Shown here piece after piece: positions 5,546 through 56,061 of a stretch of 58,104 nucleotides of DNA; within the stretch, counting starts at the first letter, position 1; each line of letters starts with the position of its first letter. The notes below the pieces were generated by a model. That model was not told the origin of the DNA and ran no database searches. It saw only the letters and a program-made list of their open reading frames with translations. Origin of the DNA: an uncultured Prevotellaceae bacterium (lineage in GTDB: Bacteria; Bacteroidota; Bacteroidia; Bacteroidales; Muribaculaceae); contig ONKD01000010.1 in assembly GCA_900318345.1 (NCBI GenBank), positions 1 to 58,104 on the forward strand. Direction: 5' to 3'. The position numbers were made by a program, and so were the translations under genes.

Positions 5546-5580
5546 TGCTCCGTAACGGCAAAAATATTAGCGTTACGGAG
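5546..5580. repeat. Palindrome TGCTCCGTAAC...CGTTACGGAG downstream of ATPase 1
   Basis: TGCTCCGTAAC (5546-5556) and its inverse CGTTACGGAG (5571-5580) form a hairpin 18 bases beyond the stop codon of the ATPase gene. The same motif recurs in five alternating copies upstream of that gene and once more at 24646-24677, so the gene is bracketed by it. On the minus strand the hairpin is followed by a T-rich stretch and may double as a terminator. Confidence 0.75.
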
Positions 5581-5597
5581 GGGTAAAGTGCGTATCT

Positions 5598-7016
5598 TTA
5601 TTGGAATAAATCGTCAAGGTTAATCACCTTTGGGATACTGCCAGAATAAGCATTTTGTTTGATTCCAGACGAGGTGACCATCGTTAACATCAATGCTTTG
5701 CGGGTTCCCGTTTCATTCCTGAACTGTTCCTGTCGTTCTATCAAGTGTTGATAGTATTCTTTTTTGATCTCATAAGGAGTCAATGAATACTTCATTTCGC
5801 ACAAGTTGATGACTTGGTCGCGGCGATCAATCACCATATCAATCTGTGCTCTATTGTCATCATTTCGGCCACGCCATGAGCAGACGTTGCTCAGGATACC
5901 AGCGATGCCTAGTGCTTGCTTTAACTGGGGCACATGGGTAAAGCAGACTTGTTCAAACGCATATCCGCTCCATGCACGGCGTGCTGGGTTGTCTATCATA
6001 TTACTCCATGTGTGTTCATCGTTGTGAGATGTCCCTGCGACAAAATGTAAATAGAAAAGGATGTATAAGTCACACAGTTGATACATGGCATCACGCTCCT
6101 TTTTTCCAAAACCGTTGTATCGACGCACAAAATCACAACTGCACAGGTTATTGAGAATTTCGGTAAGCATACCGCCATTTGACATTTTGAGCACTTCCCG
6201 AATTTCGTTACGAGTCATTCCCTGACCTCGCTTGGCTAATAAATTGACCACATTTCGATAATTGGTTGAATCATTGAACAGGGAACGGAATAGGAAAGTA
6301 TACTCGGTTCTCAATGGAGCATTAATACCGAAAAACAAATCATCTATGTTTTGGTATACACTCTTGTCTTTCCTGAGCATACTCAAGTAATAGGGTGTTC
6401 CTCCCGTTACCATGTAGCAATCCACAATCTGTTGGCGGGTCCAACCCATGCCGGCATGTTTTAGATACGTTTCTGCTTCATGCAATGTAAATTGCTCAAG
6501 TTTGATACTGCACGTGAGCCGGTTGTATAAGCCACCCTTGTTGCCTATCAGTTTGCTCATCATCCATGTAGTAGCTGAACCACACACAACAAGTTTAAGG
6601 TTATTTCTTGTTGAAGCAAACATATTCCAGAAAGATTCTAACGCCTGCAGGAACTTGGAGCGGGGCACATCCATCCATGGCAGTTCGTCAAAAAAGATGA
6701 TGATCTTTTCTTTTTTTAAATTGGTAATATAGTGTTCCAGCTGATCAAATGCCTCAAACCACGTGTTAGGGATTGGATATACACTGTCGGCGTATTTGTT
6801 GAGTTGTTTATTGAACAAGGCCAACTGGTCACGGCGTGATCCTTGATATATACCCGAAGTATAAAAGTCAAAATTATCACCATAGAATTGTTTCACGAGG
6901 AAAGTTTTGCCAATCCTGCGACGGCCGTACACGGCAATAAATTCAGCCTTATCAGATTCAGTACACGCCTGAAGAATTCCAATTTCCCGTTCTCTACCAA
7001 TAATCTCATTTGCCAT
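5598..7016 (-). CDS. AAA ATPase with C-terminal PD-(D/E)XK-type domain (ATPase 1)
   Basis: A 472-residue archaeal-type AAA ATPase (PF01637/DUF234-like). The Walker A GRRRIGKT lies at 31-38 and Walker B IIIFFDE at 105-111. The middle is a winged-helix region. The C-terminal part shows a nuclease-like D393...E407-x-K409 set (QIDMVI, then CEMKY). The reading frame stays open for 55 codons further upstream, but those codons merely translate the palindromic repeats, so I chose MANEIIG at 7016. A TATATTTG box lies 23 bp upstream. The family is abundant in Bacteroidales and its biological role is not established. Base composition is more AT-rich than neighbours, suggesting transfer. Nuclease activity is an inference from motif spacing only. 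Confidence 0.85.
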   Translation of the reverse strand: MANEIIGREREIGILQACTESDKAEFIAVYGRRRIGKTFLVKQFYGDNFDFYTSGIYQGSRRDQLALFNKQLNKYADSVYPIPNTWFEAFDQLEHYITNLKKEKIIIFFDELPWMDVPRSKFLQALESFWNMFASTRNNLKLVVCGSATTWMMSKLIGNKGGLYNRLTCSIKLEQFTLHEAETYLKHAGMGWTRQQIVDCYMVTGGTPYYLSMLRKDKSVYQNIDDLFFGINAPLRTEYTFLFRSLFNDSTNYRNVVNLLAKRGQGMTRNEIREVLKMSNGGMLTEILNNLCSCDFVRRYNGFGKKERDAMYQLCDLYILFYLHFVAGTSHNDEHTWSNMIDNPARRAWSGYAFEQVCFTHVPQLKQALGIAGILSNVCSWRGRNDDNRAQIDMVIDRRDQVINLCEMKYSLTPYEIKKEYYQHLIERQEQFRNETGTRKALMLTMVTSSGIKQNAYSGSIPKVINLDDLFQ

Positions 7017-7038
7017 AATTTCTATTATTTTTCGGCCA

Positions 7039-7046
7039 CAAATATA
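7039..7046 (-). promoter_or_regulatory. -7 box of ATPase 1
   Basis: TATATTTG on the minus strand, 23 bp before the chosen ATG. The first copy of the GTTACGGAGCA motif (7059-7069) occupies the place where the -33 element should be, as an operator would. Confidence 0.6.
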
Positions 7047-7058
7047 ATGAATTTTTGA

Positions 7059-7177
7059 GTTACGGAGCAGTAAAAATGAAAAATAGTGCTCCGTAACCCT
7101 ATTTTTTTTGACGTTACGGAGTGGTATAATGTGAAAATAGTGCTCCGTAACCCATTTTTTTAAGGCGTTACGGAGCA
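7059..7177. repeat. Five alternating inverted copies of GTTACGGAGCA at the ATPase 1 promoter
   Basis: Copies lie at 7059-7069, 7087-7097 (inverted), 7112-7121, 7141-7151 (inverted) and 7165-7177, giving a regular array of about 27-bp half-periods. Neighbouring copies can pair to form overlapping hairpins. The array covers the -33 region of the ATPase gene and continues to the end of the RsiV-like gene on the other side. It resembles an operator array or a REP-type palindromic element. Confidence 0.8.
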
Positions 7178-7212
7178 ACAAAAAAAGTTTGTGAGTCTAT
7201 GATTATAGTCTT

Positions 7213-8055
7213 TTACTCGGTGTAGTCGATGAGCTCCAGGCCGTAAGGGGTGAAGAGGCGCTTCATTTCCTCGGGCTTGAGCATGTAGGGGTAGATGGGG
7301 GCGATAATCATGCCCTGGGCATAGCTGGCGATCTCATAGACCTGATAGACCGCGTGCAGGACCAAATCGTCGATGAAGAAATCGCGCGGTAGGGGCAGCA
7401 GGCCGTTGTCGGGGATGAACAGCTGGTCCTTGTCGTAGTCGTATTCCTGCTTGATGCTCCTCAGGATTGTGTTGCGCAGCAGGGTGGTGTCGGCGATGAC
7501 ATCCTCGAGCGCAACGGCTTTCTCGTTCTTGAGGTCATAGGTGACGTAATTGTTGGCGTATATACCATGCGCAGCTCCTGCCATATAGGAATTGGTCGAC
7601 AGGCGGTAGGTGAGCAGGCGATCGGTCATTTTTTCCATGATCACTTTCACCTCGCTGGTCGATAACTTGCCGTCATCATCCTTAACAGAGGTGACAGGCG
7701 TGAATCGCTTGGCGTCATAGTCGGTATAGTTACTAGGATCGAGCAGGAAGTCGGTGACCATGTCTAGCTGGTTGAGCTCGGCACTGTCAACCATGGCACT
7801 CAACAAAGCCTGTTGCAGTGCGGTGCAGGGCTTGCCGTTGATGACTTCAGGCCAAAAGGCCGTGAACGTGTTGTTAAAGTAGAGCGTGTCGCGCTCCTCA
7901 TCATAGTAGGAGAACATTTTCTCCACCTTGATGTTGCTGAACTGGCACAGGGTGCTGTCTATCTCTTGCTCTGGCGAGCTTAGGCTTTTCTGTCCACAGG
8001 AACACATGGTTGCCACCGCGATTGCCGCAAGGGCGATAATGAGGATCTTTTTCAT
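7213..8055 (-). CDS. RsiV-like DUF3298 lipoprotein
   Basis: A 280-residue lipoprotein with a lipobox ending in TMCSCG (Cys about residue 20). The AGAAHG motif and the later DVIADTTLLRNTIL region resemble the DUF3298/RsiV C-terminal domain found in lysozyme-binding anti-sigma factors and many secreted Bacteroidota proteins of unknown role. No sigma factor adjoins it, so an anti-sigma function is not supported here. The start at 8055 is preferred over an upstream in-frame codon because it begins the signal peptide MKKILIIALAA. It is followed by the ATPase 1 repeat array. Confidence 0.8.
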   Translation of the reverse strand: MKKILIIALAAIAVATMCSCGQKSLSSPEQEIDSTLCQFSNIKVEKMFSYYDEERDTLYFNNTFTAFWPEVINGKPCTALQQALLSAMVDSAELNQLDMVTDFLLDPSNYTDYDAKRFTPVTSVKDDDGKLSTSEVKVIMEKMTDRLLTYRLSTNSYMAGAAHGIYANNYVTYDLKNEKAVALEDVIADTTLLRNTILRSIKQEYDYDKDQLFIPDNGLLPLPRDFFIDDLVLHAVYQVYEIASYAQGMIIAPIYPYMLKPEEMKRLFTPYGLELIDYTE

Positions 8056-8110
8056 TGTTATGGTTGTCGTTATGGTGATTTCTAGCCGCAAAGGTAGTGA
8101 ATTTTGGGAA

Positions 8111-8145
8111 TAAAAAAAGTAAATCCTCGACTCACGTCGGGGATT
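8111..8145 (-). terminator. Terminator facing the RsiV-like gene
   Basis: AATCCCCGAC and GTCGAGGATT (minus strand, 8145-8122, one G-U/mismatch) form a hairpin followed by ACTTTTTTT. It closes the transcript coming from the MeaB/Nudix genes before the RsiV-like gene begins. Confidence 0.7.
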
Positions 8146-8395
8146 GCTTAACTAATTAACCTTCTAATACCATTAACATAAACCTTAAACATTCTTGTTT
8201 TACTTTTTCTGAGAAAACAACTGTCTCGCGACACTCGGATTCTCATAACCTTAAAAACTAATACCATGAAAAACCGATGCAAATGTAGTGCCAATATGTT
8301 ATATAACATAATTTTGAAGCATTAAAACGCTAAAAATCCACAAAAATTAACATAATTAAATACAATTACCAAGGGATTTTACATCCATTAACAAT
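8146..8395. other. Non-coding AT-rich stretch
   Basis: Between the terminator and the hairpin at 8396 I find no gene of credible length. A leader-like sequence (AACCTTAAAAACTAATACC, then ATG at 8266) of the kind that precedes Bacteroidales outer-membrane genes is followed by only 19 codons. It could be the head of a deleted gene. Confidence 0.4.
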
Positions 8396-8428
8396 CCATG
8401 GCCGCTAGAATCCTTGTAGCGGCCATGG
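8396..8428. repeat. 12-bp perfect hairpin downstream of the Nudix gene
   Basis: CCATGGCCGCTA (8396-8407) and TAGCGGCCATGG (8417-8428) pair perfectly around a 9-base loop, 36 bases after the Nudix stop codon. There is no T run, so it is either an RNA-stabilising stem or a pause site, with the true terminator at 8111-8145. Confidence 0.6.
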
Positions 8429-8464
8429 TGCTGGAGAGGGTGATATGTGCTAAAAAGTAGTGGA

Positions 8465-8989
8465 CTATCGGCGGGTGAGGGTAGCGAAATAGATCATGTC
8501 GATCTCCTCGTAAGAGAAATCGCTGCTGAAGAAGTTGCCCGTCTTGAGTTTCAGGCAGTGGGACAGGCGTTCCAGGGCCTGTTCAAACATCTGCTGGTGG
8601 TCAAAGGCCAGCGTCGGCAGTTGGTCGATGGGGAACCAACGCGCCACGCGGGCATCGTCGCCGCCCTGCACTTGCTGCACGCGCGTGAGGGTGAAATAGG
8701 CGATGGAGATGACGCGCTCGCGCGGGTCGCGGTCGGGCGTTGCAAAGGCGCCCAGCTGCTCGATATTGGTCACTTGGAGTCCGGTTTCCTCGAGCAGTTC
8801 ACGACGTGCACCGTCAGGGGCATCCTCATCGATGTTGAGGAAGCCTCCAGGGAAAGCCCAGCAACCCTTGTAGGGCTCGCCACCGCGCTCGATGAGCAGC
8901 ACGTTGAGGTGCAGGCCGTCGTAGCCAAACACAACGCAGTCGGTGGTCACTGCTGGATGCGGGTATCGATAGCAATAGTTTCCTTCCAT
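8465..8989 (-). CDS. Nudix hydrolase
   Basis: A 174-residue cytoplasmic Nudix protein. The Nudix box Gx5Ex7REUxEExGU is complete from Gly49 to Leu71 (E55, REL at 63-65, EE at 67-68), so metal binding and cleavage of a nucleoside-diphosphate-linked compound are expected. The N-terminal HPAVTTDCVVFGY and the C-terminal extension resemble the NrtR/ADP-ribose pyrophosphatase-like group of Bacteroidota, but no winged-helix regulatory domain is evident. It lies 4 bp after the PrcB-like gene and probably shares the meaB transcript. The substrate is unknown. Confidence 0.88.
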   Translation of the reverse strand: MEGNYCYRYPHPAVTTDCVVFGYDGLHLNVLLIERGGEPYKGCWAFPGGFLNIDEDAPDGARRELLEETGLQVTNIEQLGAFATPDRDPRERVISIAYFTLTRVQQVQGGDDARVARWFPIDQLPTLAFDHQQMFEQALERLSHCLKLKTGNFFSSDFSYEEIDMIYFATLTRR

Positions 8990-8993
8990 ACCG

Positions 8994-9476
8994 TCATTTT
9001 TCCAGATAGAAGATCGTCATCTTGGTGTCACTGGCAGGTTTGTCAATGGCCACAGCGGTAAAGGGCACCATCGAGTGGGCCATCTTGTCGCCTTTCTTGA
9101 CATGGTAGCTGAATACCATAACGTCGTTGTCGGTCACCTTGACTGCAACGGGTTCGATGGCAGTAGCGCGTTTAGTCTCGGGCAGGACGATGGCCACGAC
9201 ATATTGCTTGCTCCAGTTCACCGCGGTGGGCAGGCCGCCCATTGTGGCCGCCTTGCCAAAGAAGGCATCAAAATCCTGCTCGTTGTCAATGATGAGGCGT
9301 CGTTGCTTGGAGCAGTCCACGTCGTTGCGCACGTAGTAGTTCTCTAACGTGGTGTAATGGATGGGGGTGGCGACGTTATCGATCTTTTGAGCCGCATACA
9401 TTTTGTCCATGAAGGAGCAGTTGCAGCACATCAGCAGCAGGGCACCTACGGCAAGAATAATTGTCAAGTGTTTCAT
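8994..9476 (-). CDS. Exported PrcB_C-like protein
   Basis: A 160-residue secreted protein, probably a lipoprotein (hydrophobic start, Cys-rich LLMCCNCS). The centre and C-terminus (NWSKQYVVAIVLPETKR, then KVTDNDVMVFSYHVKKG and a final YLEK) resemble the PrcB_C fold, a small beta domain. The match is by eye only. The start overlaps the meaB stop by 4 bases (ATGA), indicating translational coupling, although no functional link between a GTPase chaperone and an envelope protein is obvious. Confidence 0.55.
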   Translation of the reverse strand: MKHLTIILAVGALLLMCCNCSFMDKMYAAQKIDNVATPIHYTTLENYYVRNDVDCSKQRRLIIDNEQDFDAFFGKAATMGGLPTAVNWSKQYVVAIVLPETKRATAIEPVAVKVTDNDVMVFSYHVKKGDKMAHSMVPFTAVAIDKPASDTKMTIFYLEK

Positions 9477-10624: not shown

Positions 10625-10668
10625 TATATCAGTTGTATGTTTTAATTCTAAGTATGTTTAGTATCGCC

Positions 10669-10709
10669 AATAATTCTTTAACCTCTAACCTCTAACCAGC
10701 GCAAAGCGC
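10669..10709 (-). repeat. Hairpin followed by GGTTAGA heptamers
   Basis: Read on the minus strand, just after the DUF1573 stop codon, there is a small hairpin AGCGC-TTT-GCGCT followed by three GGTTAGA-type units ending in GGTTAAAG. A second hairpin-plus-GGTTAGAGG stretch occurs behind the PatB/MalY gene at 53089-53120. This points to an interspersed 3'-end element. Confidence 0.55.
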
Positions 10710-11807: not shown

Positions 11808-11829
11808 GCTCTGTCTTTAGTGATAATGG

Positions 11830-12228
11830 TTAGTTTTTGGGCACAACAGTTCCCTCGATGCGCAAGACCGTCGTGCGCTCCTTGCCGTTGGTCTTGATTT
11901 TCACGGTTTTCCTGAATGCGCCAGGACGACCGATGGGGCTGAAGGTCACCTTGATTTTGCCCTTCTTGCCCGGCTTGATGGGCTTGGAGGGGTACTCGGG
12001 GCGTGTGCAGCCGCACGAGGCCGTCGCGTCGATGATGAGCAGCGGTTTGTCACCGGTGTTAGTGAACTCAAAGTTGCAAGACACGGGACCGTTGGCCTCC
12101 TTGATGGTGCCAAAATCGTGGCTCTTGACCGTGAACTTGGCCTCGGCATACTTGTCATCGGCCCACAGGGCGGTAGCCACCATGCACATCGCGAAAAACG
12201 CTATAAAAAACCTTTTAGTCATTGTCAT
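11830..12228 (-). CDS. DUF1573 domain protein, short paralogue
   Basis: A 132-residue secreted protein: signal peptide to about residue 23, then a single DUF1573 domain (SHDFGTIKEA, FTNTGDKPLLI, ASCGCTRPEYP, PGKKGKI, GRPGAFRKT). It parallels the N-terminal third of the next gene, with which it forms a tandem duplication. Only 18 bp separates it from the end of the DUF3791 gene upstream and no terminator is visible there, so read-through from that module is possible. Confidence 0.87.
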   Translation of the reverse strand: MTMTKRFFIAFFAMCMVATALWADDKYAEAKFTVKSHDFGTIKEANGPVSCNFEFTNTGDKPLLIIDATASCGCTRPEYPSKPIKPGKKGKIKVTFSPIGRPGAFRKTVKIKTNGKERTTVLRIEGTVVPKN

Positions 12229-12246
12229 ATATTAATTAATTAAATG

Positions 12247-24642: not shown

Positions 24643-24687
24643 GACTGCTCCGTAACTATAAAATGGTGACGGAGCAGTTATTTTTTT
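24643..24687 (+). terminator. Terminator built from the ATPase 1 palindrome motif
   Basis: ACTGCTCCGTAAC (24644-24656) pairs with GTGACGGAGCAGT (24666-24678), followed by a long T run. The stem is the same TGCTCCGTAAC/GTTACGGAGCA motif that flanks ATPase 1 about 17 kb away. Confidence 0.85.
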
Positions 24688-26745: not shown

Positions 26746-26832
26746 AATCGATTATTTCTCTTGCGTAATTAAAAAAATATTACGTCCTTTGCATTATTAA
26801 ATTTTAATAATGCTTTTTTGATAATCGATTAT
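26746..26832 (+). promoter_or_regulatory. Palindrome cluster at the ATPase 2 promoter and start codon
   Basis: Three dyads lie in 87 bp: CGTAAT...ATTACG (26764-26784), the 10-bp-arm palindrome GCATTATTAA-ATT-TTAATAATGC (26791-26813), and ATAATCGATTAT (26821-26832), whose end overlaps the ATG. A near copy of the last, AATCGATTAT, lies at 26747-26756. A CCTTTG between the first two may be part of the -7 box. The layout suggests an operator controlling transcription and perhaps translation. Confidence 0.6.
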
Positions 26833-27976
26833 GGCTAGGGACAAGAAGACAAAGCTTAAAAATCCATTTGTAAATCAGGGTTATATCGACCCCGAGTACT
26901 TTTGCGACCGTCAACAAGAGACTGAGTTGATGCTCAACCACTTTGAGAACGGACGCAATATCACCCTTGTTGCCCCGCGTCGAATAGGAAAAACAGGCCT
27001 GATTAAGCATCTTTTTCACCACATCGAGTCGCAAAACAAGAATGCGATTTGCCTTTACATTGACATTTTTGCCACTAAAAACTTGCGTGATTTTACCGAA
27101 ATGTTCGGCTCGGTCGTCTTTAACGGCTTTGTCAAGCGTGAAAAGTCATTTCTACAGAAGGCGACAACCCTCTTGAGCAGCCTGCGCCCGGTGTTCTCGA
27201 CCGACCCGTTCACGGGTGTGCCCAAGGTGGCCATCACCGTAGAGCCATCGCGTGCCCAGCTGACCATCCAGCAGATTTTTGAGTGGCTGGCCAAGAGCCG
27301 CCGCGAGATCTACATTGCCATCGATGAGTTCCAGCAAATCGCCAACTACCCCGAGGACGGCACCGAGGCCCTGTTGCGCTCCCACATCCAGTTTGCAGGC
27401 GGCGTTCACTTCATTTTCGCCGGCAGCAAGTTCCACCTCATGGCCGAGATGTTCGGTTCGCCCAAGCGCCCCTTCTTCCAGAGCACCGAGACGATGGACC
27501 TACGTCCCCTGGATAAGGAAGTGTATTACCAGTTCGCCAGCGCCTTCTTTGTGAAAAAGCGCGGTAGTCTTGATCACGACACCTTCATCCAGCTCTATGA
27601 CCGTTTCGACGGCCACACCTGGTATATACAGAACGTGCTCAACAGGCTCTATGAGAGCTGCCAGCACGTCAAAACCATGGAAGAGGTGAACCGCGAGACC
27701 GTTCGCCTTGTTGAGAGCAAGTCACCGCAATACGAGAGCCTGGCGCAGTTCCTCTCCTCCAACCAGTTCAATCTCTTGAAAGCCATCGCCAGCGAGGGCA
27801 TCGTCGCCGAGCCCATGGGCGGCAAGTTCATCCGTCAGCACAACCTACTCTCACCCAGTATCGTGCAGTCGGCCCTGCGCGGCCTCCTCGACAAGGAAAT
27901 CGTCTATCGCACTCCTCAGGGCTACATCGTCTACGACCGCTTCATGTCCATCTGGCTAAAGCGCACCTTCGGCTGA
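26831..27976 (+). CDS. Archaeal-type AAA ATPase without nuclease domain (ATPase 2)
   Basis: A 381-residue ATPase: Walker A APRRIGKT at 48-55, Walker B YIAIDEF at 161-167, a sensor-like FAGSKFHLM segment and a C-terminal winged helix (about 290-380; LLKAIASEGIVAEP, SPSIVQSALRGLLDKEIV). It belongs to the archaeal-ATPase group but, unlike ATPases 1 and 4, I see no PD-(D/E)XK-like residues at its end. ATG at 26831 lies within a palindrome. It is a single-gene unit and its partner or substrate is unknown. Codon use is close to that of the neighbours except at the AT-rich 5' end. Confidence 0.85.
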   Translation: MARDKKTKLKNPFVNQGYIDPEYFCDRQQETELMLNHFENGRNITLVAPRRIGKTGLIKHLFHHIESQNKNAICLYIDIFATKNLRDFTEMFGSVVFNGFVKREKSFLQKATTLLSSLRPVFSTDPFTGVPKVAITVEPSRAQLTIQQIFEWLAKSRREIYIAIDEFQQIANYPEDGTEALLRSHIQFAGGVHFIFAGSKFHLMAEMFGSPKRPFFQSTETMDLRPLDKEVYYQFASAFFVKKRGSLDHDTFIQLYDRFDGHTWYIQNVLNRLYESCQHVKTMEEVNRETVRLVESKSPQYESLAQFLSSNQFNLLKAIASEGIVAEPMGGKFIRQHNLLSPSIVQSALRGLLDKEIVYRTPQGYIVYDRFMSIWLKRTFG

Positions 27977-37462: not shown

Positions 37463-38158
37463 TCACAGTCCTATCAACCACTTGATGAGGAACCACAGCG
37501 GCGGCACCAGCAAGGCGGGCAGCATGTTGAGCACGTGGCAGTCCTTGATGCGCAGCAGCGACAGCCCCGAGCCGGTGATCATCAGGCCACCCACGATGAG
37601 CAACTCGGCCATCAAGGCATCACTCACGGCAGTGCTGGAAATCAGTGCCACACCATAGAACAGGCCCTGCCACAGGAACAACACGGGTGCCGCCAATAGC
37701 ATACCGATGCCGTAGGTCGAGCCAAAGATGGTCGCCGTCACCAGGTCGAGCGTGGCGTTGGTGAACAGGAACGTGTGGTCCCCCTCCAGCGCGCTGATGA
37801 CAGGACCCAGCATCGACAACGGCCCGATGCAATAAACCAGTGTTGCCGTTGCCAGGCCATCGGCAAGGCGTGGGCCGCTGCTACCCTTGCTCTTGCGATC
37901 CACAAGGCGGTGAAAACGTCCATCAATGTCGAGCGACACTCCCACGATGCTGCCCAGTGCCATAGCGGCAATGAACAGCACGGGATACTGGCTCTTGGGC
38001 AGGTTAGTCACCACCGCGTTCAGCCCGATGGCAAAGCACGCCAGCCCCAGCGCGTCATAGAGCACATTCTTGTATTTGTCCTTAGTTCCCTTGTGCAGAG
38101 CAACTCCAATGAGGGTCCCCGCCACAATGGTGCAAGTATTGACAATAGTTCCAATCAT
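37463..38158 (-). CDS. DUF554 membrane protein (YdfK family)
   Basis: A 231-residue polytopic protein with about seven helices. The start MIGTIVNTCTIVAGTLIGV and the GLATATLVYCIGPLSMLG and FGSTYGIGM blocks are characteristic of DUF554. It is probably a transporter of unknown substrate. It is only 15 bp downstream of the ATPase 3 gene and in the same direction, so it may be transcribed with it. Confidence 0.9.
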   Translation of the reverse strand: MIGTIVNTCTIVAGTLIGVALHKGTKDKYKNVLYDALGLACFAIGLNAVVTNLPKSQYPVLFIAAMALGSIVGVSLDIDGRFHRLVDRKSKGSSGPRLADGLATATLVYCIGPLSMLGPVISALEGDHTFLFTNATLDLVTATIFGSTYGIGMLLAAPVLFLWQGLFYGVALISSTAVSDALMAELLIVGGLMITGSGLSLLRIKDCHVLNMLPALLVPPLWFLIKWLIGL

Positions 38159-38173: not shown

Positions 38174-39346
38174 TCAATAGGTCATACCGAAGGTCCATAA
38201 TGGAATCTGATTTCCCGCTCCGATTTCCAAGTCATCTTTCACAACATAGGCATTAGGCACATTCTTGACTTGACGGCTGCTTTTTTTCTTACCGCCCACT
38301 TCAAATGTGATATCCCCGATTTCAAAGTCGGCTATTCTCGAAGCGATGATGTCGCTAACGACCCTCATCTGGTTGTAAAAGAATGTCTCGCGGATGTTCC
38401 CGATGTCGGTCATCGCACCGCCCATGACATACGCAAGATTGGTATTGTCAAGATACACTTTCTCGACTTTGCCCAGGCCTCTGATTCCTCCCGTATCATC
38501 CCGCAGTTGCCCTATCATGCCGGCTTTTTCCATATAAACAAAATAGTCAGGCAGCACATTACGGCTCACACCCACTACTGTGGCTAGGGAATCCATCACG
38601 GGTTTAAAAGGCACGCTCTTGGATATGATGCTCAACAGGTGGCGCAGTTTTCGTCCTGTTGCCACGGTCATTTTAGCATACTGTGGGATGTCAATGTCCA
38701 TGGTCTGCTCCACAATCTGATTGAGAATCATCTCAAACTGCGGGTCACCACCAAACGGATAATACCCGTGTTGCAGGTACTCATGGAACCATGGCAACGG
38801 ATGTGCGACACCATCCAGTTTCACCTTGCAGGCCAGCACATCAGCCAATGTGGCAACAGGAAACTGCAAACCATGAAACAGCGCCAGATATTCACGGAAT
38901 GACAAACCTTGCATCCGATAAATGGGTGACCTGCGGCTCAAGTCGGCCTCACCATGAGTGATATCTAGTATCGAGGAGCCGGTGAAGGAAACATTCAGGT
39001 CGGGATGGCTATCGTAGATCTGTTTGAGTTCTTGTGACCAGTTACCATATTTGTGGATTTCATCAATGAAAAGATGCTGGCCTCCCTCACGGGCAAACTT
39101 GTCGGCCACATCTATGAGCGAATGGGAGGAGAAGTAAACATTATCAGCCGAGACATAGAACATCTTCTTCTGGCCGCGGTGCTCATGTATATATTGTAAA
39201 AACAATGTCGTTTTCCCGACACCGCGTGGACCAACCAAACCAAACATCTGCCGCTCCCAGTTAATTTGGGAGTACATGTAGCGATGAAAAGCTATCGAGA
39301 CAGCGTCAACGCGCTGCTCCATAATTCTTGTTAAAGTGGCATCCAT
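38174..39346 (-). CDS. AAA_14/DUF4143-like ATPase (ATPase 3)
   Basis: A 390-residue ATPase: Walker A GPRGVGKT at 39-46, Walker B LFIDEI at 92-97 followed by HKYGNW, and a sensor-like FTGSSILDI. The C-terminal half is DUF4143-like with a weak PD-(D/E)XK pattern (DFEIGDITFEVGGKKK). The middle LSFREYLALF is typical of the family. Its promoter is overlaid by two palindromes built on TTGCACAAA. Function unknown. An alternative start is Met9 (MEQRVDAV). Confidence 0.85.
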   Translation of the reverse strand: MDATLTRIMEQRVDAVSIAFHRYMYSQINWERQMFGLVGPRGVGKTTLFLQYIHEHRGQKKMFYVSADNVYFSSHSLIDVADKFAREGGQHLFIDEIHKYGNWSQELKQIYDSHPDLNVSFTGSSILDITHGEADLSRRSPIYRMQGLSFREYLALFHGLQFPVATLADVLACKVKLDGVAHPLPWFHEYLQHGYYPFGGDPQFEMILNQIVEQTMDIDIPQYAKMTVATGRKLRHLLSIISKSVPFKPVMDSLATVVGVSRNVLPDYFVYMEKAGMIGQLRDDTGGIRGLGKVEKVYLDNTNLAYVMGGAMTDIGNIRETFFYNQMRVVSDIIASRIADFEIGDITFEVGGKKKSSRQVKNVPNAYVVKDDLEIGAGNQIPLWTFGMTY

Positions 39347-39361: not shown

Positions 39362-39429
39362 CAAAGATACAAAATTGCACAAAAATTTGTGCAATTTTTG
39401 ACATTTTTTGCACAAAAATTTGTGCAAAA
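39362..39429 (-). promoter_or_regulatory. ATPase 3 promoter with two TTGCACAAA palindromes
   Basis: The -7 box TATCTTTG lies at 39369-39362 on the minus strand. Immediately upstream are two copies of the 20-bp palindrome TTGCACAAAAATTTGTGCAA, near 39375-39394 and 39408-39427, spaced by about 33 bp. The first covers the place of the -33 element. This is a strong candidate operator. Confidence 0.75.
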
Positions 39430-48911: not shown

Positions 48912-48919
48912 TAACTTTG
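48912..48919 (+). promoter_or_regulatory. -7 box of the glsA-like operon
   Basis: TAACTTTG, 31 bp before the ATG. A second box, TAATTTTG at 48920-48927, follows directly and could be used instead. Confidence 0.6.
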
Positions 48920-48950
48920 TAATTTTGTAGAGTGATTGATTACAGTTAAC

Positions 48951-49778: not shown

Positions 49779-49794
49779 CCATAAAAATAGCCCT

Positions 49795-50733: not shown

Positions 50734-50746
50734 CCCCCGAATCAAT

Positions 50747-52381
50747 ATGAGAAGAACCGTCAAATTCTCTCTTCTTAGTCTAGCGCTGCTGTTCTTTTTA
50801 ACGGCAACAGGACAGGAGTCACTGGACTCCATCTTAAACATTAATGAAATTGACGTTCTCGGTGAAACGGTATTAATAACCGAATGCGGTCCAGGAGAGG
50901 TTGCCGCTGATGATATCAATTTTCACATTGGAATCATCATGAATGCCGGCAACAGCGAGTTGGCGCCTTACTACATCGCCTCCAACAATTGGGGCGCCAT
51001 CACTCAACAATACTCCACATTGCTTGACGCAGGTTTGTTTCATTACATGACTATCCACCCTGACCGGATATCATGGGGGGCAGGCCTTCAAATCATGGGC
51101 GGCTACGCATCGAGCGCTGGCTACGAGCACTATGACGGTAACGGTCAATTCAATGTGCGGCAACAGCATCCTGCTCGGCTGTGGATACAGCAAGCCTATG
51201 TTGAGGGGAAATACCGCAGCATCTTTGCTGTGGCGGGACAAAGGTGCAAGCAATCGCCCATCGTCAACGGCCGGTTGAGCAGCGGTGACCTCGTCTGGAG
51301 CACCAATTCCCGCCCGCCTGTAGGCATGCGCGCCGGTTTCATTGATTTCCAGGACATCCCGTTTACCAAGGGCTGGGTGCAGATTAAGGGCGAGTTCGGC
51401 TACTTCCGCCAGCTGGATGACAAGTGGCTCGAGAACCACTACAACTATTATAACCATTTCATCACCACGGACACATGGCTGCACTACAAGAGCCTGCATT
51501 TCCGCACCAATCCCAATCAGCCCGTCGTGTTCACCATCGGCGCCCAATCGGCCTGCCAGTTTGGCGGCACGGCCAAATACTACAAGGATGGTCAGCTTGA
51601 TCACACGGTCAAGATGGACGCCGACCTTAAGGCCTTCTGGCGCACCTTTATCGCGGGCAGCGGCGGCAACAGCGCGGGTGACTCGTTTGTCGAGGGCAAC
51701 CATCTGGGCACTTGGGACATCGCGCTCGAGTACAATCTGAATGACGGCAAGCAGTTGCGCGCCTACACCCAATGGCTATGGGAGGATGGCTCGGGTATCG
51801 GCAAGATGAACGGCTTTGACGGCCTGTGGGGACTGGAATACCGCAGCATGGGTGCTCATAGCTTGATCGATGGCGCTGTCATTGAATATATCGATTTCAC
51901 TAACCAGAGCGGCCCCATCCACTGGACTCCTAACGACCATGAGAGCACGGCCATTACCGGCCACTCCTCGGGCGCCGACGATTACTACAATAACTACATC
52001 TACAACGGCTACCAGAGCCGCGGCATGTCCATCGGTTCACCCTTTGTCAAGTCGCCGCTTTACAACCTTGACGGCTACATGCGCTACCGCGACAACGTGC
52101 TGCGCGGTTTTCATGTTGCCATGAAGGGCTATTTGAGCCCCGAATGGACATACTGCCTGAAAGGTTCATACCGCAAGGCATGGGGTACTCCACTCCTGCC
52201 CCGAGTGGGCAGCGTCGATGACTTCTCGATGGCGCTTGATGTTCAATATCATCCAGAATATAAGCTCAAGGGATGGGTGCTCAATGCTACTGTGGCCATG
52301 GACCGCGGCAAACTGTATGGCAACAACTGGGGTGGCATGCTGGGCATCACATATCGTGGCGCTTTTAACTTCAACAAGTGA
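50747..52381 (+). CDS. Wzi-like capsule assembly protein
   Basis: A 544-residue outer-membrane barrel with a signal peptide (about 1-22). The pattern of alternating strands with aromatic girdle residues and the VEGKYRSIFAVAGQRCKQSP and IEYIDFTNQSGPIHW blocks fit the Wzi/YmcA-type family that anchors capsule or exports surface polysaccharide. It lies 13 bp behind the glsB-like gene. Whether it is functionally linked to the lipids or merely cotranscribed is open. The frame upstream to 50543 translates the end of glsB and was rejected. Confidence 0.8.
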   Translation: MRRTVKFSLLSLALLFFLTATGQESLDSILNINEIDVLGETVLITECGPGEVAADDINFHIGIIMNAGNSELAPYYIASNNWGAITQQYSTLLDAGLFHYMTIHPDRISWGAGLQIMGGYASSAGYEHYDGNGQFNVRQQHPARLWIQQAYVEGKYRSIFAVAGQRCKQSPIVNGRLSSGDLVWSTNSRPPVGMRAGFIDFQDIPFTKGWVQIKGEFGYFRQLDDKWLENHYNYYNHFITTDTWLHYKSLHFRTNPNQPVVFTIGAQSACQFGGTAKYYKDGQLDHTVKMDADLKAFWRTFIAGSGGNSAGDSFVEGNHLGTWDIALEYNLNDGKQLRAYTQWLWEDGSGIGKMNGFDGLWGLEYRSMGAHSLIDGAVIEYIDFTNQSGPIHWTPNDHESTAITGHSSGADDYYNNYIYNGYQSRGMSIGSPFVKSPLYNLDGYMRYRDNVLRGFHVAMKGYLSPEWTYCLKGSYRKAWGTPLLPRVGSVDDFSMALDVQYHPEYKLKGWVLNATVAMDRGKLYGNNWGGMLGITYRGAFNFNK

Positions 52382-52851
52382 TGAAAAAGACAACATTATA
52401 TGATAGTAACCATTCCCCCTCTAAGATTAGAGGCGGTCAGGGGGCGTTGATAACAATCATCTGTACGGTTATGATCCTGTTAAGCGCCTGCACCCGAAAC
52501 CACGGTGACATCGGTATCTGGTTCGGCACGTGGCATGTCGAGTCCATCACGGTTGACGACGTGCCCGCCCAGGTCGAGGGCGACTACTTCTTCCAGTTCC
52601 AGAGCACGGTCTTCAGGGTGTCCCAGGTCTATGGCCACGAGCAGTTGGTCGAGAGCTTCGGCACATGGGAAGAAGGTGATGGCAAGATGACCATTAGTTT
52701 CCCTGACCCTGACGTCTTCTATATCCAAATGCCAGGCTTAGAGGACCACAACGACTTTACCGTCACTACCACCTCATCCCACGATGTCATTTTCTCGCGC
52801 GTCACCACCGCAGGCTCAACCGTCACCTATCATCTCCACAAGCAACCTTGA
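52381..52851 (+). CDS. Lipocalin-like lipoprotein
   Basis: A 156-residue lipoprotein with a lipobox LLSACT (Cys about 38) after an unusually long N-terminus. The mature part, IGIWFGTWHVESITVDD...VFRVSQVYGHEQLVESFGTWEE, is that of a small lipocalin-like beta domain. ATG overlaps the Wzi stop by one base (TGATG), so it is part of the operon. The function is unknown. Confidence 0.75.
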   Translation: MKKTTLYDSNHSPSKIRGGQGALITIICTVMILLSACTRNHGDIGIWFGTWHVESITVDDVPAQVEGDYFFQFQSTVFRVSQVYGHEQLVESFGTWEEGDGKMTISFPDPDVFYIQMPGLEDHNDFTVTTTSSHDVIFSRVTTAGSTVTYHLHKQP

Positions 52852-53125
52852 TTGTACCCTATCTGGCGGATGCCTCCCTAAAGCCTAAAACCCGCTTTCC
52901 CTGCGTGCAATCCCCTTTTTTCACATATAATTACCACGAATTTTCCATTAATTATATGATCAATTCACGGCAATTCACGTGAAAAAAATTTAAAAGTTTG
53001 TCCTTCTTGTCTTTCTTGTCTTCTAACCCAAGACCGTAGCGGCTTCGCGCCTTTGCGTGAGGCCAGGAAGCGGATGCCTCTCTATACTTTAACCTCTAAC
53101 CTCTATACTGCTCGCGCAGCGAGCA
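52852..53125. repeat. Non-coding stretch of interspersed repeats
   Basis: This 274-bp interval holds no gene. It contains GCGGATGCCTCCCT near 52866 and GCGGATGCCTCTCT near 53071, inverted AATTAC/GTGAATT-type segments (ACCACGAATTTTCC, CGGCAATTCACGTG) and TAACCTCTAACCTCTA, which resembles the stretch behind the DUF1573 gene at 10680. A hairpin GCTCGCTGCGCGAGC adjoins the stop of the next gene on the minus strand. It looks like a composite of Bacteroidota interspersed repeats. Confidence 0.5.
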
Positions 53126-54307
53126 TCACACCACGGCCTCCTCGAGTTGCTGCATGGCTTGGCGCAGGATAGAGCGGGGCACGGCGACGTTGAGGCGCAT
53201 GAAGCCGCTGCCGCCCTTGCCGAACATCGCTCCGTCGTTGAGGCCCAGGCGAGCCTTGTTGACAAACAGGTCGATGAGCGCATCATGCTCCAGCCCAAGG
53301 CCCGTGCAGTCGAGCCACACGAGGAACGAGGCTTGTGGCTTGATGGCCTTGATGCCCGGGATGTGGTCACGGCAATAGTCCACCACCATGTCGATGTTGC
53401 CCTCGATGTAGTCCAGGCATTGGCTGAGCCACTCGCCACCGTGGCGGTAGGCTGCGCGTGTGGCGGTCATCGACAGGAAGTTGGGCGCGCTCTGGCTGTT
53501 GGTCGTCAGCCAGTTGAAGAACGGAAGACGCAGCTCGGGATTCTTGACAACGCACCACGAACTCACAATGCCCGCAATATTAAACGTCTTGCTGGGGGCG
53601 CCCATCACCACGCCTACGGCGCGCGCGTCATCGCTCACGGTGAGGAACGAGGTGTGGCGGTGACCCTTGAGCATGAGGTCGCCATGGATCTCGTCGCTGA
53701 ACACGATGACGCCATACTGGCGGGCTAGGGCCGCCACTTGGCGCTGCACGTCGGCGCTCCAGGCGATGCCGATGGGGTTGTGGGGGTTGCACAGCACCAT
53801 CATGCGTGGTTGCTCCTCCTTGAAGATGCGCTCCAGTCCCTCGAGGTCCATCTCGTAGAAGCCGTCGGCCGTGCGCCTGAGGGCGTTGTTCACCACCATG
53901 CGGTTATTGCCCGTGATCAGCATCCTGAAGGGGTGATACACCGGCTCCTGGATCACCACGCGGTCACCGGGACGGGTGAAATGGTTCAATGCCAGTCCGA
54001 ACCCGTTCACGATGCCCCCGATGAAGCACACCTCGTCCTGGCTGAATTCCAGGCCGTTGCGCTCGCGCTGCCAGTCGATGATAGACTGCCAGTAATCCTC
54101 TAGGGGCACGCTGTAGCCATAGATGGGGTGTCCCTCGACGCGGTCAACCAGCGCCCGCGTGATCTCGGGGCAGGCAGCGAATCCCATATCGGCGACCCAC
54201 AAGGGGAGGATGTCGGTGCGTCCAAACATCTCTTGGCACATATCAATCATGACACAACCGCTGCCGCTGCGGTCAATCACGGTGTCGAAGTCATATTTCT
54301 TGTTCAT
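53126..54307 (-). CDS. PatB/MalY-type aminotransferase (C-S lyase)
   Basis: A 393-residue PLP enzyme of the aminotransferase fold I. The active-site lysine sits in GAPSKTFNIAG, with the family motifs CNPHNPIGIAW and FSDEIHGDL upstream and FLVWLDCTGL downstream. The DILPLWVADMGFAACPEI start is typical of the PatB/MalY subgroup, which cleaves cystathionine or other C-S bonds. I prefer ATG at 54307 to an upstream TTG. The physiological substrate is not predictable from sequence. It is a single-gene unit facing away from tRNA-Lys. Confidence 0.92.
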   Translation of the reverse strand: MNKKYDFDTVIDRSGSGCVMIDMCQEMFGRTDILPLWVADMGFAACPEITRALVDRVEGHPIYGYSVPLEDYWQSIIDWQRERNGLEFSQDEVCFIGGIVNGFGLALNHFTRPGDRVVIQEPVYHPFRMLITGNNRMVVNNALRRTADGFYEMDLEGLERIFKEEQPRMMVLCNPHNPIGIAWSADVQRQVAALARQYGVIVFSDEIHGDLMLKGHRHTSFLTVSDDARAVGVVMGAPSKTFNIAGIVSSWCVVKNPELRLPFFNWLTTNSQSAPNFLSMTATRAAYRHGGEWLSQCLDYIEGNIDMVVDYCRDHIPGIKAIKPQASFLVWLDCTGLGLEHDALIDLFVNKARLGLNDGAMFGKGGSGFMRLNVAVPRSILRQAMQQLEEAVV

Positions 54308-54410
54308 GCGATTTTTTATTAATGATGTGATAATGAGACACAAAAATAAGTGTTTTGCCGCAACTGAGACAAAAAAAGAAGATTTTTTTCAAAAAAAATC
54401 GCAAAAATAG

Positions 54411-54440
54411 TTTGTAGTTTAGAAAAAAGCAGTACCTTTG
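54411..54440 (+). promoter_or_regulatory. Promoter of tRNA-Lys
   Basis: TTTG at 54411-54414 and TACCTTTG at 54433-54440 are about 18 bp apart, in the same CAGTACCTTTGCAGTCGC context as the tRNA-Asp unit. Confidence 0.75.
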
Positions 54441-54462
54441 CAGTCGCAATTGAACAAACGAT

Positions 54463-54557
54463 GACTCCGTAGCTCAGTTGGTAGAGCAATTGACTCTTAA
54501 TCAATGGGTCGTCTCTTAATCAATGGGTCGTGGGTTCGAGTCCCACCGGGGTCACCA
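54463..54557 (+). tRNA. tRNA-Lys(CTT) with a 19-nt internal tandem duplication
   Basis: All arms of tRNA-Lys are present: acceptor GACTCCG/CGGGGTC, D arm GCTC/GAGC, anticodon stem ATTGA/TCAAT around loop CTCTTAA (anticodon CTT), T arm GTGGG/CCCAC and encoded CCA. The 19-nt segment CTCTTAATCAATGGGTCGT occurs twice in tandem (54494-54512 and 54513-54531). It duplicates the anticodon loop, the 3' anticodon stem and the variable region, making a 95-nt instead of a 76-nt gene. The extra bases would have to bulge from the variable region. The gene may be a pseudogene or a tolerated expansion. The promoter and terminator are intact. Confidence 0.85.
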
Positions 54558-54609
54558 AAAGGAAAGCCAAATAACTTGTAATGAGCCGTTTGGCTTTTTC
54601 GTTGCGTCA
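54542..54609 (+). repeat. Left direct repeat (tRNA-Lys 3' end plus terminator)
   Basis: From CCCACCGGGGTCACC, the end of tRNA-Lys, through the terminator to TTTTTCGTTGCGTCA, this 68-bp stretch reappears with a few mismatches at 56258-56325. It bounds ATPase 4 on the left and looks like one att-type end of a former insertion. Confidence 0.75.
54563..54599 (+). terminator. Terminator of tRNA-Lys
   Basis: AAAGCCAAA (54563-54571) pairs with TTTGGCTTT (54589-54597) and ends in T residues. A near-identical copy lies at 56279-56315. Confidence 0.8.
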
Positions 54610-54751
54610 CCCGTTGACGTATTTTGTCGAACTTGGGTTCAAAACGTTTCAGCGGTTTGTTTTTCTGATTAACTCAATTCTTTATTGCAGTCTAAAAACG
54701 AAAATCTGTGGAAAGCAAAGATCGTCTAGGAAAATGGCAATATTGCGCTAA

Positions 54752-54810
54752 AGTTCCCCTAGAAAAGTGTAATAATTACTTGGAAGTTCCCCTAGAAAAG
54801 TGTAATTTTG
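54752..54810 (+). promoter_or_regulatory. ATPase 4 promoter with direct repeats
   Basis: AGTTCCCCTAGAAAAGTGTA starts a 22-bp direct repeat present at 54752-54773 and 54785-54806, spaced 33 bp. The second copy overlaps the -7 box TAATTTTG (54803-54810), 24 bp before the ATG. The arrangement resembles an operator bound by a multimeric protein. Confidence 0.7.
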
Positions 54811-54834
54811 CGGCCTAAATAATTAGTTAACAAG

Positions 54835-56061
54835 ATGAAAAGAGAACTTGAGAGCAAGCTGTTAGAGTGGAAGAATAATCCCAGTCGCAAGCCTTTGATT
54901 GTTATGGGAGCAAGACAAGTGGGAAAAACGTATTTGTTACAGCAGTTTGGAAACAACCACTATGACCATGTTGCCTATATCAACTGTGACAATAATCCAC
55001 GTGTTGCCCATCTGTTTGCAGAGGATTATGATATGGAACGCATTATACTTGCCATAGGTGCTATAACCGGTGTACCCATCATAGCGGGAAAGACCTTGAT
55101 TATCCTCGATGAAATACAGGAACTGAAAAATGGTCTGACTGCATTGAAATACTTCTGCGAACAGGCATCGCAGCAACATGTAGCAGTGGCGGGTTCGTTG
55201 TTGGGTATCACTATGCACCATGGTGAATCGGCACCTGTCGGAAAGGTTGATATACTCAGTATGTATCCGTTGACTTATACAGAATTTCTTCAAGCTTTAG
55301 GTCAAGAGCAATTGGTGCAGGTCTTGAAGTCTAACGATTGGAAAACTATCCAGATGCTGAAATACGATTTCATCAAGTACCTGCGTATTTACTATTTTGT
55401 AGGTGGGATGCCAGAGTCAGTGCTGAAATATATTGAAACCCGCGACACGATGTCAGTAAGAGAGGTGCAGAACAATATTCTAGCCATTTACCGAAGCGAC
55501 ATGTCTAAACATGCCACTCCACAAGAAGTGGTGCGTATCACACAGGTGTGGCAATCTATACCCTCGCAACTAGCACGTGAGAACAAAAAATTCATCTATG
55601 GAGCCATCAAATCAGGAGCACGCGCACGAGAGTTTGAGCTGGCTATCCAATGGTTGCAAGACGCTGGGTTAGTAATTCGAGTGAATCGTGCCTCTAAGCC
55701 AAATCTGCCACTGAAATTCTATGAGGATCCGTCTGCATTCAAGCTATATTTGCTTGATGTTGGCATGTTGGGGGCATTGGGAAATGTGCCTCCTGAACAG
55801 TTGTTGACCAAGGATAACGAACTCTATGATAGCAAAGGTGCTATTACCGAGAATTATGTTGTAACCCAGATAGCAACTATGCGCGATGTGACAATGTGCT
55901 ACTATAGCAACGAGAACCATACCCTAGAAATTGATATGCTTCTGCAAGACAGGAGCAATATTTGGCCCATTGAAATAAAAGCAGAGGAAAACCTAAGATC
56001 AAAATCGTTGAGCACTTATGTCAAGAATAATCCGTCACTTACAGGATTACGATTCTCATGA
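54835..56061 (+). CDS. AAA_14/DUF4143-type ATPase with PD-(D/E)XK-like end (ATPase 4)
   Basis: A 408-residue ATPase: Walker A GARQVGKT at 25-32, Walker B LIILDEI at 88-94, a sensor-like AVAGSLLGI, the YPLTYTEFLQALG segment of the family, a DUF4143 middle, and a C-terminal D367...E380-x-K382 set (EIDMLLQ, IEIKAEE). It ends soon after LTGLRFS. Family members usually continue about 20-30 residues, so the C-terminus may be truncated at the edge of the insertion. AT-rich codon use differs from the upstream genes, a sign of transfer. The role is unknown. Confidence 0.85.
   Translation: MKRELESKLLEWKNNPSRKPLIVMGARQVGKTYLLQQFGNNHYDHVAYINCDNNPRVAHLFAEDYDMERIILAIGAITGVPIIAGKTLIILDEIQELKNGLTALKYFCEQASQQHVAVAGSLLGITMHHGESAPVGKVDILSMYPLTYTEFLQALGQEQLVQVLKSNDWKTIQMLKYDFIKYLRIYYFVGGMPESVLKYIETRDTMSVREVQNNILAIYRSDMSKHATPQEVVRITQVWQSIPSQLARENKKFIYGAIKSGARAREFELAIQWLQDAGLVIRVNRASKPNLPLKFYEDPSAFKLYLLDVGMLGALGNVPPEQLLTKDNELYDSKGAITENYVVTQIATMRDVTMCYYSNENHTLEIDMLLQDRSNIWPIEIKAEENLRSKSLSTYVKNNPSLTGLRFS

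What the first reader, a model, noticed from the sequence alone, without database searches (positions are those of the whole stretch)
5546..56061. Four AAA+ ATPase genes, each with its own unrelated repeat array over its promoter
ATPase 1 (7059-7177, GTTACGGAGCA array), ATPase 2 (26746-26832, several palindromes), ATPase 3 (39374-39429, two TTGCACAAA palindromes) and ATPase 4 (54752-54806, 22-bp direct repeat) all have motifs that overlap or flank the -7/-33 region, yet the motifs are mutually unrelated. ATPases 1 and 4 have clear, and 3 a possible, C-terminal PD-(D/E)XK-like residues. The consistent layout suggests each protein recognises its own site, either as an autorepressor or as a site-specific nuclease/NTPase in a selfish or defence module. 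Repeats and motifs are seen directly. The link between protein and repeat is inference.
Basis: partly seen in the sequence, partly recalled or inferred. Interest (0 to 1): 0.75.

Follow-up and report, generated by a model that had tools for sequence, protein, structure and literature searches.

The report
ATPase genes carrying private promoter repeats
Several related bacterial ATPase genes, widely listed as possible virus-defence genes, each carry their own private set of evenly spaced DNA repeats at their start, and the gene comes and goes while the repeats often stay, which hints at a self-controlling and possibly selfish gene family.

Summary
It does not hold for ATPase 2 taken alone, although ATPase 2's family shows the pattern. 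PADLOC labels ATPase 4 PDC-S01 and ATPase 1 PDC-S27, untested phage-defence candidates.

Repeats at the promoter are a property of these protein families. They occur upstream of 61/68 (type 4), 58/67 (1), 43/50 (3) and 34/48 (2) homologues, against 52/276 control genes. Unit sequences differ from gene to gene, but the period is family-specific: 32-33 bp for types 3 and 4, 52-54 bp for type 1 where it repeats. The 33-bp array recurs in PDC-S01 genes of other phyla (48 of 78; controls 2 of 152). Site sequence tracks protein sequence (Mantel r 0.27).

In the window's genus arrays occur without their gene. The ATPase 1 site is in 24 of 101 genomes: 7 with ATPase 1, 3 with only a different ATPase, 14 with none. 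In two genomes ATPase 1 is 95-96% identical to the window's while the neighbouring gene is 74-76%.

Best reading: each ATPase binds its own array and represses itself, and ORF plus array is a laterally moving, perhaps homing, unit. Binding, repression and homing are inferred, not shown.

The parts
5598..7016 (-). ATPase 1: PF01637-type AAA+ with C-terminal PD-(D/E)XK motif; PADLOC PDC-S27
   Evidence: start at ATG 7016 by homology
7059..7177 (.). ATPase 1 array: five GTTACGGAG/CTCCGTAAC arms, 54-bp period
5546..5580 (.). further unit of the same site downstream of the ATPase 1 stop codon (brackets the gene)
7039..7046 (-). -7 box TATATTTG of ATPase 1
   Evidence: read
26831..27976 (+). ATPase 2: PF01637-type AAA+ with C-terminal winged helix (reading of the model), no nuclease motif seen
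26791..26813 (.). ATPase 2 palindrome GCATTATTAAA-T-TTTAATAATGC; not clearly significant against shuffles
38174..39346 (-). ATPase 3: AAA_14 ATPase with altered PD-(D/E)XK-like C-terminus
39375..39394 (.). ATPase 3 site copy 1, TTGCACAAAAATTTGTGCAA
39408..39427 (.). ATPase 3 site copy 2, 33 bp from copy 1
54835..56061 (+). ATPase 4: AAA_14 + DUF4143 (PD-(D/E)XK); PADLOC PDC-S01; ends about 25 aa before most homologues
54752..54773 (+). ATPase 4 site copy 1, AGTTCCCCTAGAAAAGTGTAAT
54785..54806 (+). ATPase 4 site copy 2, 33 bp on, overlapping the -7 box 54803-54810
54717..54740 (+). degenerate third copy of the ATPase 4 site
54542..54616 (+). tRNA-Lys 3' end plus following sequence, left copy of a 75-bp direct repeat (91%) flanking ATPase 4 and its array
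56257..56331 (+). right copy of that direct repeat
3107..5416 (-). neighbour 'dn769' (outer-membrane beta-barrel), used as flank to compare occupied and empty ATPase 1 sites
37463..38158 (-). DUF554 gene; in genome G460 the ATPase 3 array lies directly next to it with no ATPase

Best explanation
These are AAA+ ATPases with Orc1/Cdc6-like fold neighbours and a winged-helix region (ATPases 1 and 4 also with a PD-(D/E)XK nuclease motif), each paired with a private array of recognition sites at its own promoter. The protein most likely oligomerises along the array: the site sequence sets specificity, and the family-specific period (about 3 helical turns, 32-33 bp, in the ATPase 3 and 4 families) reflects the geometry of neighbouring subunits. 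In doing so it covers the -33/-7 region and represses its own gene. ORF plus array behaves as a laterally moving unit; when the ORF is lost or not yet gained, the array remains as a footprint or landing place. Shown: association, fixed period, covariation (type 4), different histories of gene and flank, ORF presence/absence at a retained array. Inferred: binding, autorepression, the physiological trigger.
For: Repeats (z>4) upstream of 61/68 (type 4), 58/67 (1), 43/50 (3) and 34/48 (2) homologues, against 52/276 control genes and 21/68, 23/68, 12/48, 13/49 downstream regions. Among upstreams with a scoring direct repeat the period is 32, 33 or 64-66 bp in 56 of 59 (type 4) and 32 or 33 in 36 of 40 (type 3); controls 1/276. 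Cross-phylum PDC-S01 genes 48 of 78 against 2/152 controls. Site tracks protein: Mantel r 0.267, best of 2000 permutations 0.153. All 13 hits of the type-4 site in G000, G338 and G352 lie in the array of the orthologous gene. Window homology to G352 and G338 covers array plus gene only. Five ATPase 1 homologues of the own genome have five different sites. Top fold neighbours: PAB2304 for ATPases 4 and 2, SSO1545 for 2, DNA-bound Orc1/Cdc6 for both. The direct-repeat span overlaps the -7/-33 region in 43/68 (4), 34/49 (3), 26/67 (1), 26/49 (2).
Against: No binding, repression or expression data. ATPase 2's own promoter is not clearly significant, and its family's 14-15 bp period also appears in 10 of 276 controls. 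A column-by-column search for specificity residues did not beat permutation. Arrays occur without the gene, so another factor might use them. 26 of 78 cross-phylum homologues scored below threshold. Of 6 other genomes with ATPase 1 at this place, 4 have the gene more similar than the flank but in 2 (G414, G422) the flank is more similar. In G422, G462, G464, G424 and G423 homology to the window runs past ATPase 4's end by about 150-240 bp, so array plus gene is not always the whole shared unit.
Confidence: 0.6

Rival explanations
1. Homing-type selfish gene: the nuclease cuts (or the ATPase marks) a solo array in a new host and the ORF is copied in by recombination between arms; later loss leaves a solo array that can be invaded again. 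The array is operator, target and footprint at once.
For: Same chromosomal position is occupied, solo or bare in one genus. ATPase 1 protein identity to the window exceeds flank identity by 10-21 points in G464, G420, G409 and G440; in G420 and G464 the nucleotide jump falls, at 100-bp resolution, at the ATPase 1 end beside the downstream unit. The nearest genome by flank among those compared (G437, 96.9% over the 257 residues on its contig) has only the solo array. 20 of 67 type-1 genes have an upstream-downstream match beyond the 99th percentile of mismatched pairs; the 12 examined are 50-82 bp copies of the site, 91-100% identical. A second PDC-S01-type ATPase sits among or beside the GTTACGGAG arms in G440, G462, G463, G478. 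ATPase 3 is missing as a clean ORF in G460.
Against: Sites stay intact beside the gene, so a cutter would attack itself. The ATPase 2 family has arrays without a visible nuclease motif. Some solos look like plain deletions: L422 keeps the first codons, L432 keeps the array joined to the stretch that follows the gene. In G414 and G422 flank identity exceeds gene identity. No cleavage data.
Confidence: 0.25
2. Phage-defence genes kept silent by their own product; phage DNA or a phage protein pulls the ATPase off the array and releases nuclease or abortive activity. Lateral mobility is that of any defence gene.
For: ATPase 4 = PDC-S01 (E 1e-165), ATPase 1 = PDC-S27 (E 1e-198) in PADLOC. PMC12988326 (passages read) calls PDC-S01 the fourth most common defence across prokaryotes. 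Foldseek also hits Avs3.
Against: PDCs come from genomic association, and that paper says validation is pending for most. The nine neighbouring proteins scanned gave envelope, regulatory, metabolic or no families, not defence ones; a defence island was not systematically sought.
Confidence: 0.2
3. The arrays are bound by some other host regulator or are promoter architecture; the ATPases happen to sit behind them.
For: Arrays remain well formed without the ATPase; in G460 the ATPase 3 array sits directly before DUF554.
Against: The type-1 and type-4 sites lie at one locus per genome, sites differ among paralogues in one cell, and the 33-bp array recurs with the same protein family across phyla.
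Confidence: 0.1
4. Chance repeats of AT-rich Bacteroidota promoters.
For: Some control promoters have simple repeats; ATPase 2's own palindromes are near chance level.
Against: Controls with 32/33/64-66 period: 1/276 and 2/152 against 56/69 and 48/78.
Confidence: 0.02

Closest known systems
PADLOC PDC-S01 and PDC-S27 (phage-defence candidates)
   Same: ATPases 4 and 1 match these models at E 1e-165 and 1e-198
   Different: In the passages and listings seen no promoter array, private site or solo array is described; validation said to be pending for most PDCs
Archaeal Orc1/Cdc6 initiators and their origin-recognition boxes; plasmid Rep proteins with iterons (iteron and ORB roles recalled)
   Same: AAA+ fold neighbours including DNA-bound Orc1/Cdc6; tandem sites upstream of the protein's own gene
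   Different: Sites are private to each paralogue and diverge fast; origin function not tested here; added nuclease motif in ATPases 1 and 4
Homing endonuclease genes (gain-loss cycle, recalled)
   Same: Nuclease motif, occupied and empty alleles, lateral spread at a fixed place
   Different: Recognition array is kept in the occupied allele; AAA+ motor; array lies at the promoter
PAB2304 (2qen) and SSO1545 (2fna)
   Same: 2qen is the top Foldseek hit for ATPases 4 and 2, 2fna the second for ATPase 2; both match the sequence profiles of the ATPase 1 and 2 families
   Different: Function of these solved proteins is not stated in the records seen; no array tested

Membership tests
PDC-S01 | match to the PADLOC profile | tested here: met
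   ATPase 4 E 9.6e-166; ATPase 3 only 1.1e-20
PDC-S01 | antiviral activity | not testable with these tools
   no assay; validation said to be pending for most PDCs
PDC-S27 | match to the PADLOC profile | tested here: met
   ATPase 1 E 1.3e-198
PD-(D/E)XK nuclease | conserved D...E-x-K triad | tested here: met
   ATPase 4: E380, K382 invariant, D367 at 90% or more of 54 sequences; ATPase 1: D393, E407, K409 invariant in 40; ATPase 3 altered, ATPase 2 none seen
Iteron-autoregulated AAA+ initiator (Orc1/Cdc6-like) | AAA+ with C-terminal winged helix, Orc1/Cdc6-like fold | tested here: met
   AF2 mean pLDDT 92.5 and 89.3; Foldseek neighbours; TM-scores of the named hits only 0.28-0.63; ATPases 1 and 3 were not modelled
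Iteron-autoregulated AAA+ initiator (Orc1/Cdc6-like) | tandem sites at own promoter | tested here: met
Iteron-autoregulated AAA+ initiator (Orc1/Cdc6-like) | acts as replication origin | not tested
Homing endonuclease gene | occupied and empty alleles at one site | tested here: met
Homing endonuclease gene | insertion destroys the recognition site | tested here: not met
   intact two-arm sites on both sides of ATPase 1 in the window and in G420
Homing endonuclease gene | site-specific cleavage | not testable with these tools
   -
Transposon with terminal repeats | same repeat at both ends | tested here: inconclusive
   type 1 20/67, others 6-8 of 49-69 beyond the 99th percentile; 9 of 12 type-1 examples direct, 3 inverted; a transposase was not sought

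The most novel reading that the evidence does not exclude
A previously unrecognised, cross-phylum class of selfish single-gene elements: Orc1-like AAA+ ATPase/nucleases that carry a private iteron array serving at once as operator, specificity tag and landing site. They spread by homing into solo arrays and diversify their site to avoid cross-talk among paralogues. Much of what is now counted as the PDC-S01 and PDC-S27 'defence' families would be these elements.
Probability: 0.25. Interest if true: 0.93.

Novelty: new variant of a known kind. Interest (0 to 1): 0.8.

Why it matters
PDC-S01 is reported as the fourth most common defence system across prokaryotes (PMC12988326, passages read) and as the most frequent individual locus in rumen genomes (PMC13356809, passages), and no mechanism appears in what was read. 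A private, readable array in front of most members gives each protein a predicted binding target that a gel shift can test. Paired site and protein sequences across phyla offer a specificity code to crack. The solo arrays raise the question whether these genes are defences, selfish elements or both.

Tried and rejected
Chance or promoter artefact: rejected for ATPases 1, 3 and 4 by shuffles and two sets of control genes. 33 of 309 controls were dropped because they shared the ATPase's own intergenic region; with them the control count is 67/309, without them 52/276.

Dispersed repeat family: not supported for the type-1 and type-4 sites, which lie at one locus per genome. For the ATPase 3 palindrome several single hits (L452, L454, L455, L458, L460, L465) look unrelated to the gene.

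Specificity residues by column association: no column beat the permutation maximum (observed 1.80, largest of 40 permutations 2.09).

Searching the order for the ATPase 4 repeat at one mismatch: only the own genome of 247 drawn.

Literature: searches listed no paper that describes arrays at these ATPases. The library holds only open PMC papers and mostly titles and abstract starts were seen, so this is weak evidence of novelty. Passages of PMC12988326 and PMC13356809 were read; all other papers were seen as listings.

Homologue sampling: loci were the best-scoring matches plus further listed matches chosen by hand, not a random draw. 240 loci were analysed and 4 dropped for lack of a start codon (L037, L042, L104, L148). 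For the z-scores 67, 48, 50 and 68 upstreams (types 1, 2, 3, 4) had 100 bp or more without N. The TGT anchor is imposed by the method; 40 of 149 loci gave no anchored site.
Full report
WHAT WAS CLAIMED. Four AAA+ genes in one window, each with its own unrelated repeat over its promoter, suggested that each protein recognises its own site.

THE FOUR PROTEINS. ATPases 1 and 2 match PF01637, ATPase 3 matches AAA_14, ATPase 4 matches AAA_14 plus DUF4143. PADLOC assigns ATPase 1 to PDC-S27 and ATPase 4 to PDC-S01, ATPase 3 only distantly to PDC-S01 and ATPase 2 to none convincingly. Conserved PD-(D/E)XK residues are present in families 4 and 1, altered in 3 and not seen in 2. AlphaFold models of ATPases 4 and 2 are confident (mean pLDDT 92.5 and 89.3); 1 and 3 were not modelled. 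Foldseek puts PAB2304 first for both, SSO1545 second for ATPase 2, and DNA-bound Orc1/Cdc6 high for both, though TM-scores are modest (0.28-0.63).

THE REPEATS IN THE WINDOW. Arrays of ATPases 1, 3 and 4 exceed dinucleotide shuffles strongly; ATPase 2's palindromes do not. The site pairs of ATPases 3 and 4 are both spaced exactly 33 bp.

FAMILY TEST. Homologues were sought in 149 genomes of the family: ATPase 4 type in 84, 1 in 45, 3 in 41, 2 in 39, at the cut-offs used. 240 loci were analysed, 236 with a usable start. Repeats with z>4 in the 160 bp upstream: 61/68, 58/67, 43/50, 34/48 for types 4, 1, 3, 2; downstream of the same genes 21/68, 23/68, 12/48, 13/49; other genes in the same loci 52/276 after dropping 33 controls that share the ATPase's intergenic region. 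Among upstreams with a scoring direct repeat, the period is 32, 33 or 64-66 bp in 56 of 59 (type 4), 32 or 33 in 36 of 40 (type 3), 14 or 15 in 25 of 29 (type 2) and 52-54 in 18 of 25 (type 1). In 276 controls, 28 score at all: 1 has the 33-bp class, 10 the 14-15 class, 1 the 52-54 class. The type-2 period is thus the least specific. Type 1 is mainly an inverted-repeat class (58 of 67 with scoring arms; controls 55 of 311, before the overlap filter). A -7 box (TAnnTTTG, 15-110 bp upstream) is present in 60/68, 62/67, 47/49 and 36/49 of types 4, 1, 3, 2 against 94/252 controls, and the direct-repeat span overlaps the -7/-33 region in 43, 26, 34 and 26 of them.

BEYOND THE FAMILY. A scan of genome contigs gave 80 PDC-S01 relatives with record titles from Bacteroidota, Bacillota, Spirochaetaceae, Fibrobacter, Akkermansia, Cyanobacteria, Chlamydiae, Elusimicrobiaceae and others. 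Of 78 with 100 bp upstream, 52 had a scoring direct repeat, 48 of them at 32/33 or 65/66 bp; 2 of 152 other genes in those loci did. Of 24 viral-contig relatives examined, 13 score at 32 or 33 bp, near-duplicates included. This removes explanations tied to Bacteroidota promoters alone.

COVARIATION. A repeated site anchored on TGT could be drawn for 109 of 149 PDC-S01-type loci; at 0.80 identity or more in 160 bp, 38/69 and 45/80 against 0/276 and 0/152 controls. The skeleton is roughly AAAGTTC, five or six variable bases, then AAAA(A/G)TGT; the TGT is imposed. Protein and site identity correlate (Mantel r 0.267; best of 2000 permutations 0.153). Catonella morbi (L253) and a Spirochaetaceae genome (L254) share the window's CCCCTAGAAAAGTGTA. 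The hunt for specificity residues was inconclusive.

PRIVACY AND CO-TRAVEL. The ATPase 4 site at two mismatches or fewer occurs 2, 4 and 7 times in G000, G352 and G338, always in the array of the orthologous gene. Window homology to those two loci covers array plus gene only. In G422, G462, G464, G424 and G423 the shared stretch runs on past the gene: there array plus gene is 91-96% identical and the following stretch 79-89%.

BRACKETING. In 20 of 67 type-1 loci the upstream and downstream regions match beyond the 99th percentile of mismatched pairs; types 2, 3 and 4 give 8/49, 8/49 and 6/69. The 12 type-1 examples examined are copies of the site of 50-82 bp, 91-100% identical, 9 direct and 3 inverted. 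Some hits of the other types are not array copies.

OCCUPIED, SOLO AND BARE SITES. The ATPase 1 site (two arms, 12-24 bp apart) is found in 24 of 101 genus genomes; the reversed control in 1. Seven have ATPase 1 beside it, at 89-100% protein identity. Of the other 17, three (G462, G463, G478) have a different, PDC-S01-type ATPase among or beside the arms, with its own repeat; G440 has both ATPases (PADLOC was run on the copies of G462 and G440). Fourteen have arms and no ATPase of any of the four types in the 3.6-9 kb held; 12 of these lie next to the same neighbour gene. G445 and G396 have the window's own two flanks with one unit between them. G399, G407, G413 and G421 lack arms at that place.

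LATERAL MOVEMENT. Protein identity of ATPase 1 and of the neighbour (window 3107-5416): G464 95.3 and 73.9, G420 95.7 and 75.6, G409 93.6 and 83.6, G440 89.5 and 71.9, but G414 89.1 and 92.0, G422 89.1 and 91.3. In nucleotides, read in 100-bp steps, G420 and G464 go from 65-78% to 92-94% at the ATPase 1 end beside the downstream unit. The nearest genome by flank among those compared, G437 (96.9% over 257 residues), has only a solo array. So gene and flank have different histories at a fixed place.

ATPASES 3 AND 4. The ATPase 4 site is in 21 of 101 genus genomes, reversed control 0: 10 with the orthologue at 80-100%, 2 beside a different ATPase, 9 with no orthologue in the fetched flank, some near contig ends; in 8 of these 9 no ATPase of the four types was found, in L438 only a distant 23% hit. 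G416 (L422) keeps array and first codons; G463 (L432) keeps the window's flank and the array, joined to the stretch that follows the gene in the window. The ATPase 3 palindrome occurs in 10 of 101; the orthologue is adjacent in G000, G423 and G440. In G460 the array joins DUF554 with the ATPase ORF cleanly absent, and G468 is similar. Some solos are thus decay products; whether others are landing sites is open.

MECHANISM. Best reading: the protein binds its array cooperatively, probably through the winged helix, and represses itself; the trigger and the output of the nuclease are unknown. Homing and phage defence are compatible extensions, scored as rivals because each makes a separate prediction.

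LIMITS. Homologues share ancestry, so counts are not independent. Nothing here shows binding.

Noticed in passing
window 54463-54557: tRNA-Lys(CTT) gene of 95 nt with an internal duplication of TCTTAATCAATGGGTCGT; its 3' end and the following sequence are repeated at 56257-56331, so ATPase 4 lies in a 1.7-kb att-like bracket.
   Followed up: partly
window 56046-56140: ATPase 4 stops about 25 aa before most homologues; the sequence after the stop codes a different tail.
   Followed up: partly
L401 4319-5710, L411 2675-4063, L412 2231-3619, L413 4182-5570: A second PDC-S01-type ATPase with its own AATCTCAAAAAGGTGTA repeat sits among or beside the GTTACGGAG arms, in two genomes (G440, G478) apparently inside the 21-bp spacer.
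   Followed up: partly
window 24646-24656: Single extra GTTACGGAGCA copy upstream of a histidine kinase gene; at the chance level.
   Followed up: no
L421, L428, L434: ATPase 4 array followed by a start codon of a frame not matching the ATPase (MRRRNYDE...), as if the promoter and array now serve something else; no ORF of 80 aa or more was listed there.
   Followed up: no
L233 control upstream: A control gene with palindromic ATTCTTTCCAAT repeats at its promoter; other families may use the same layout.
   Followed up: no
L455, L458, L460, L465: Recurrent single palindrome GCACCAAAATTTGTGC in a conserved context near a gene starting MGLIDDSKRI; a different repeat family.
   Followed up: no
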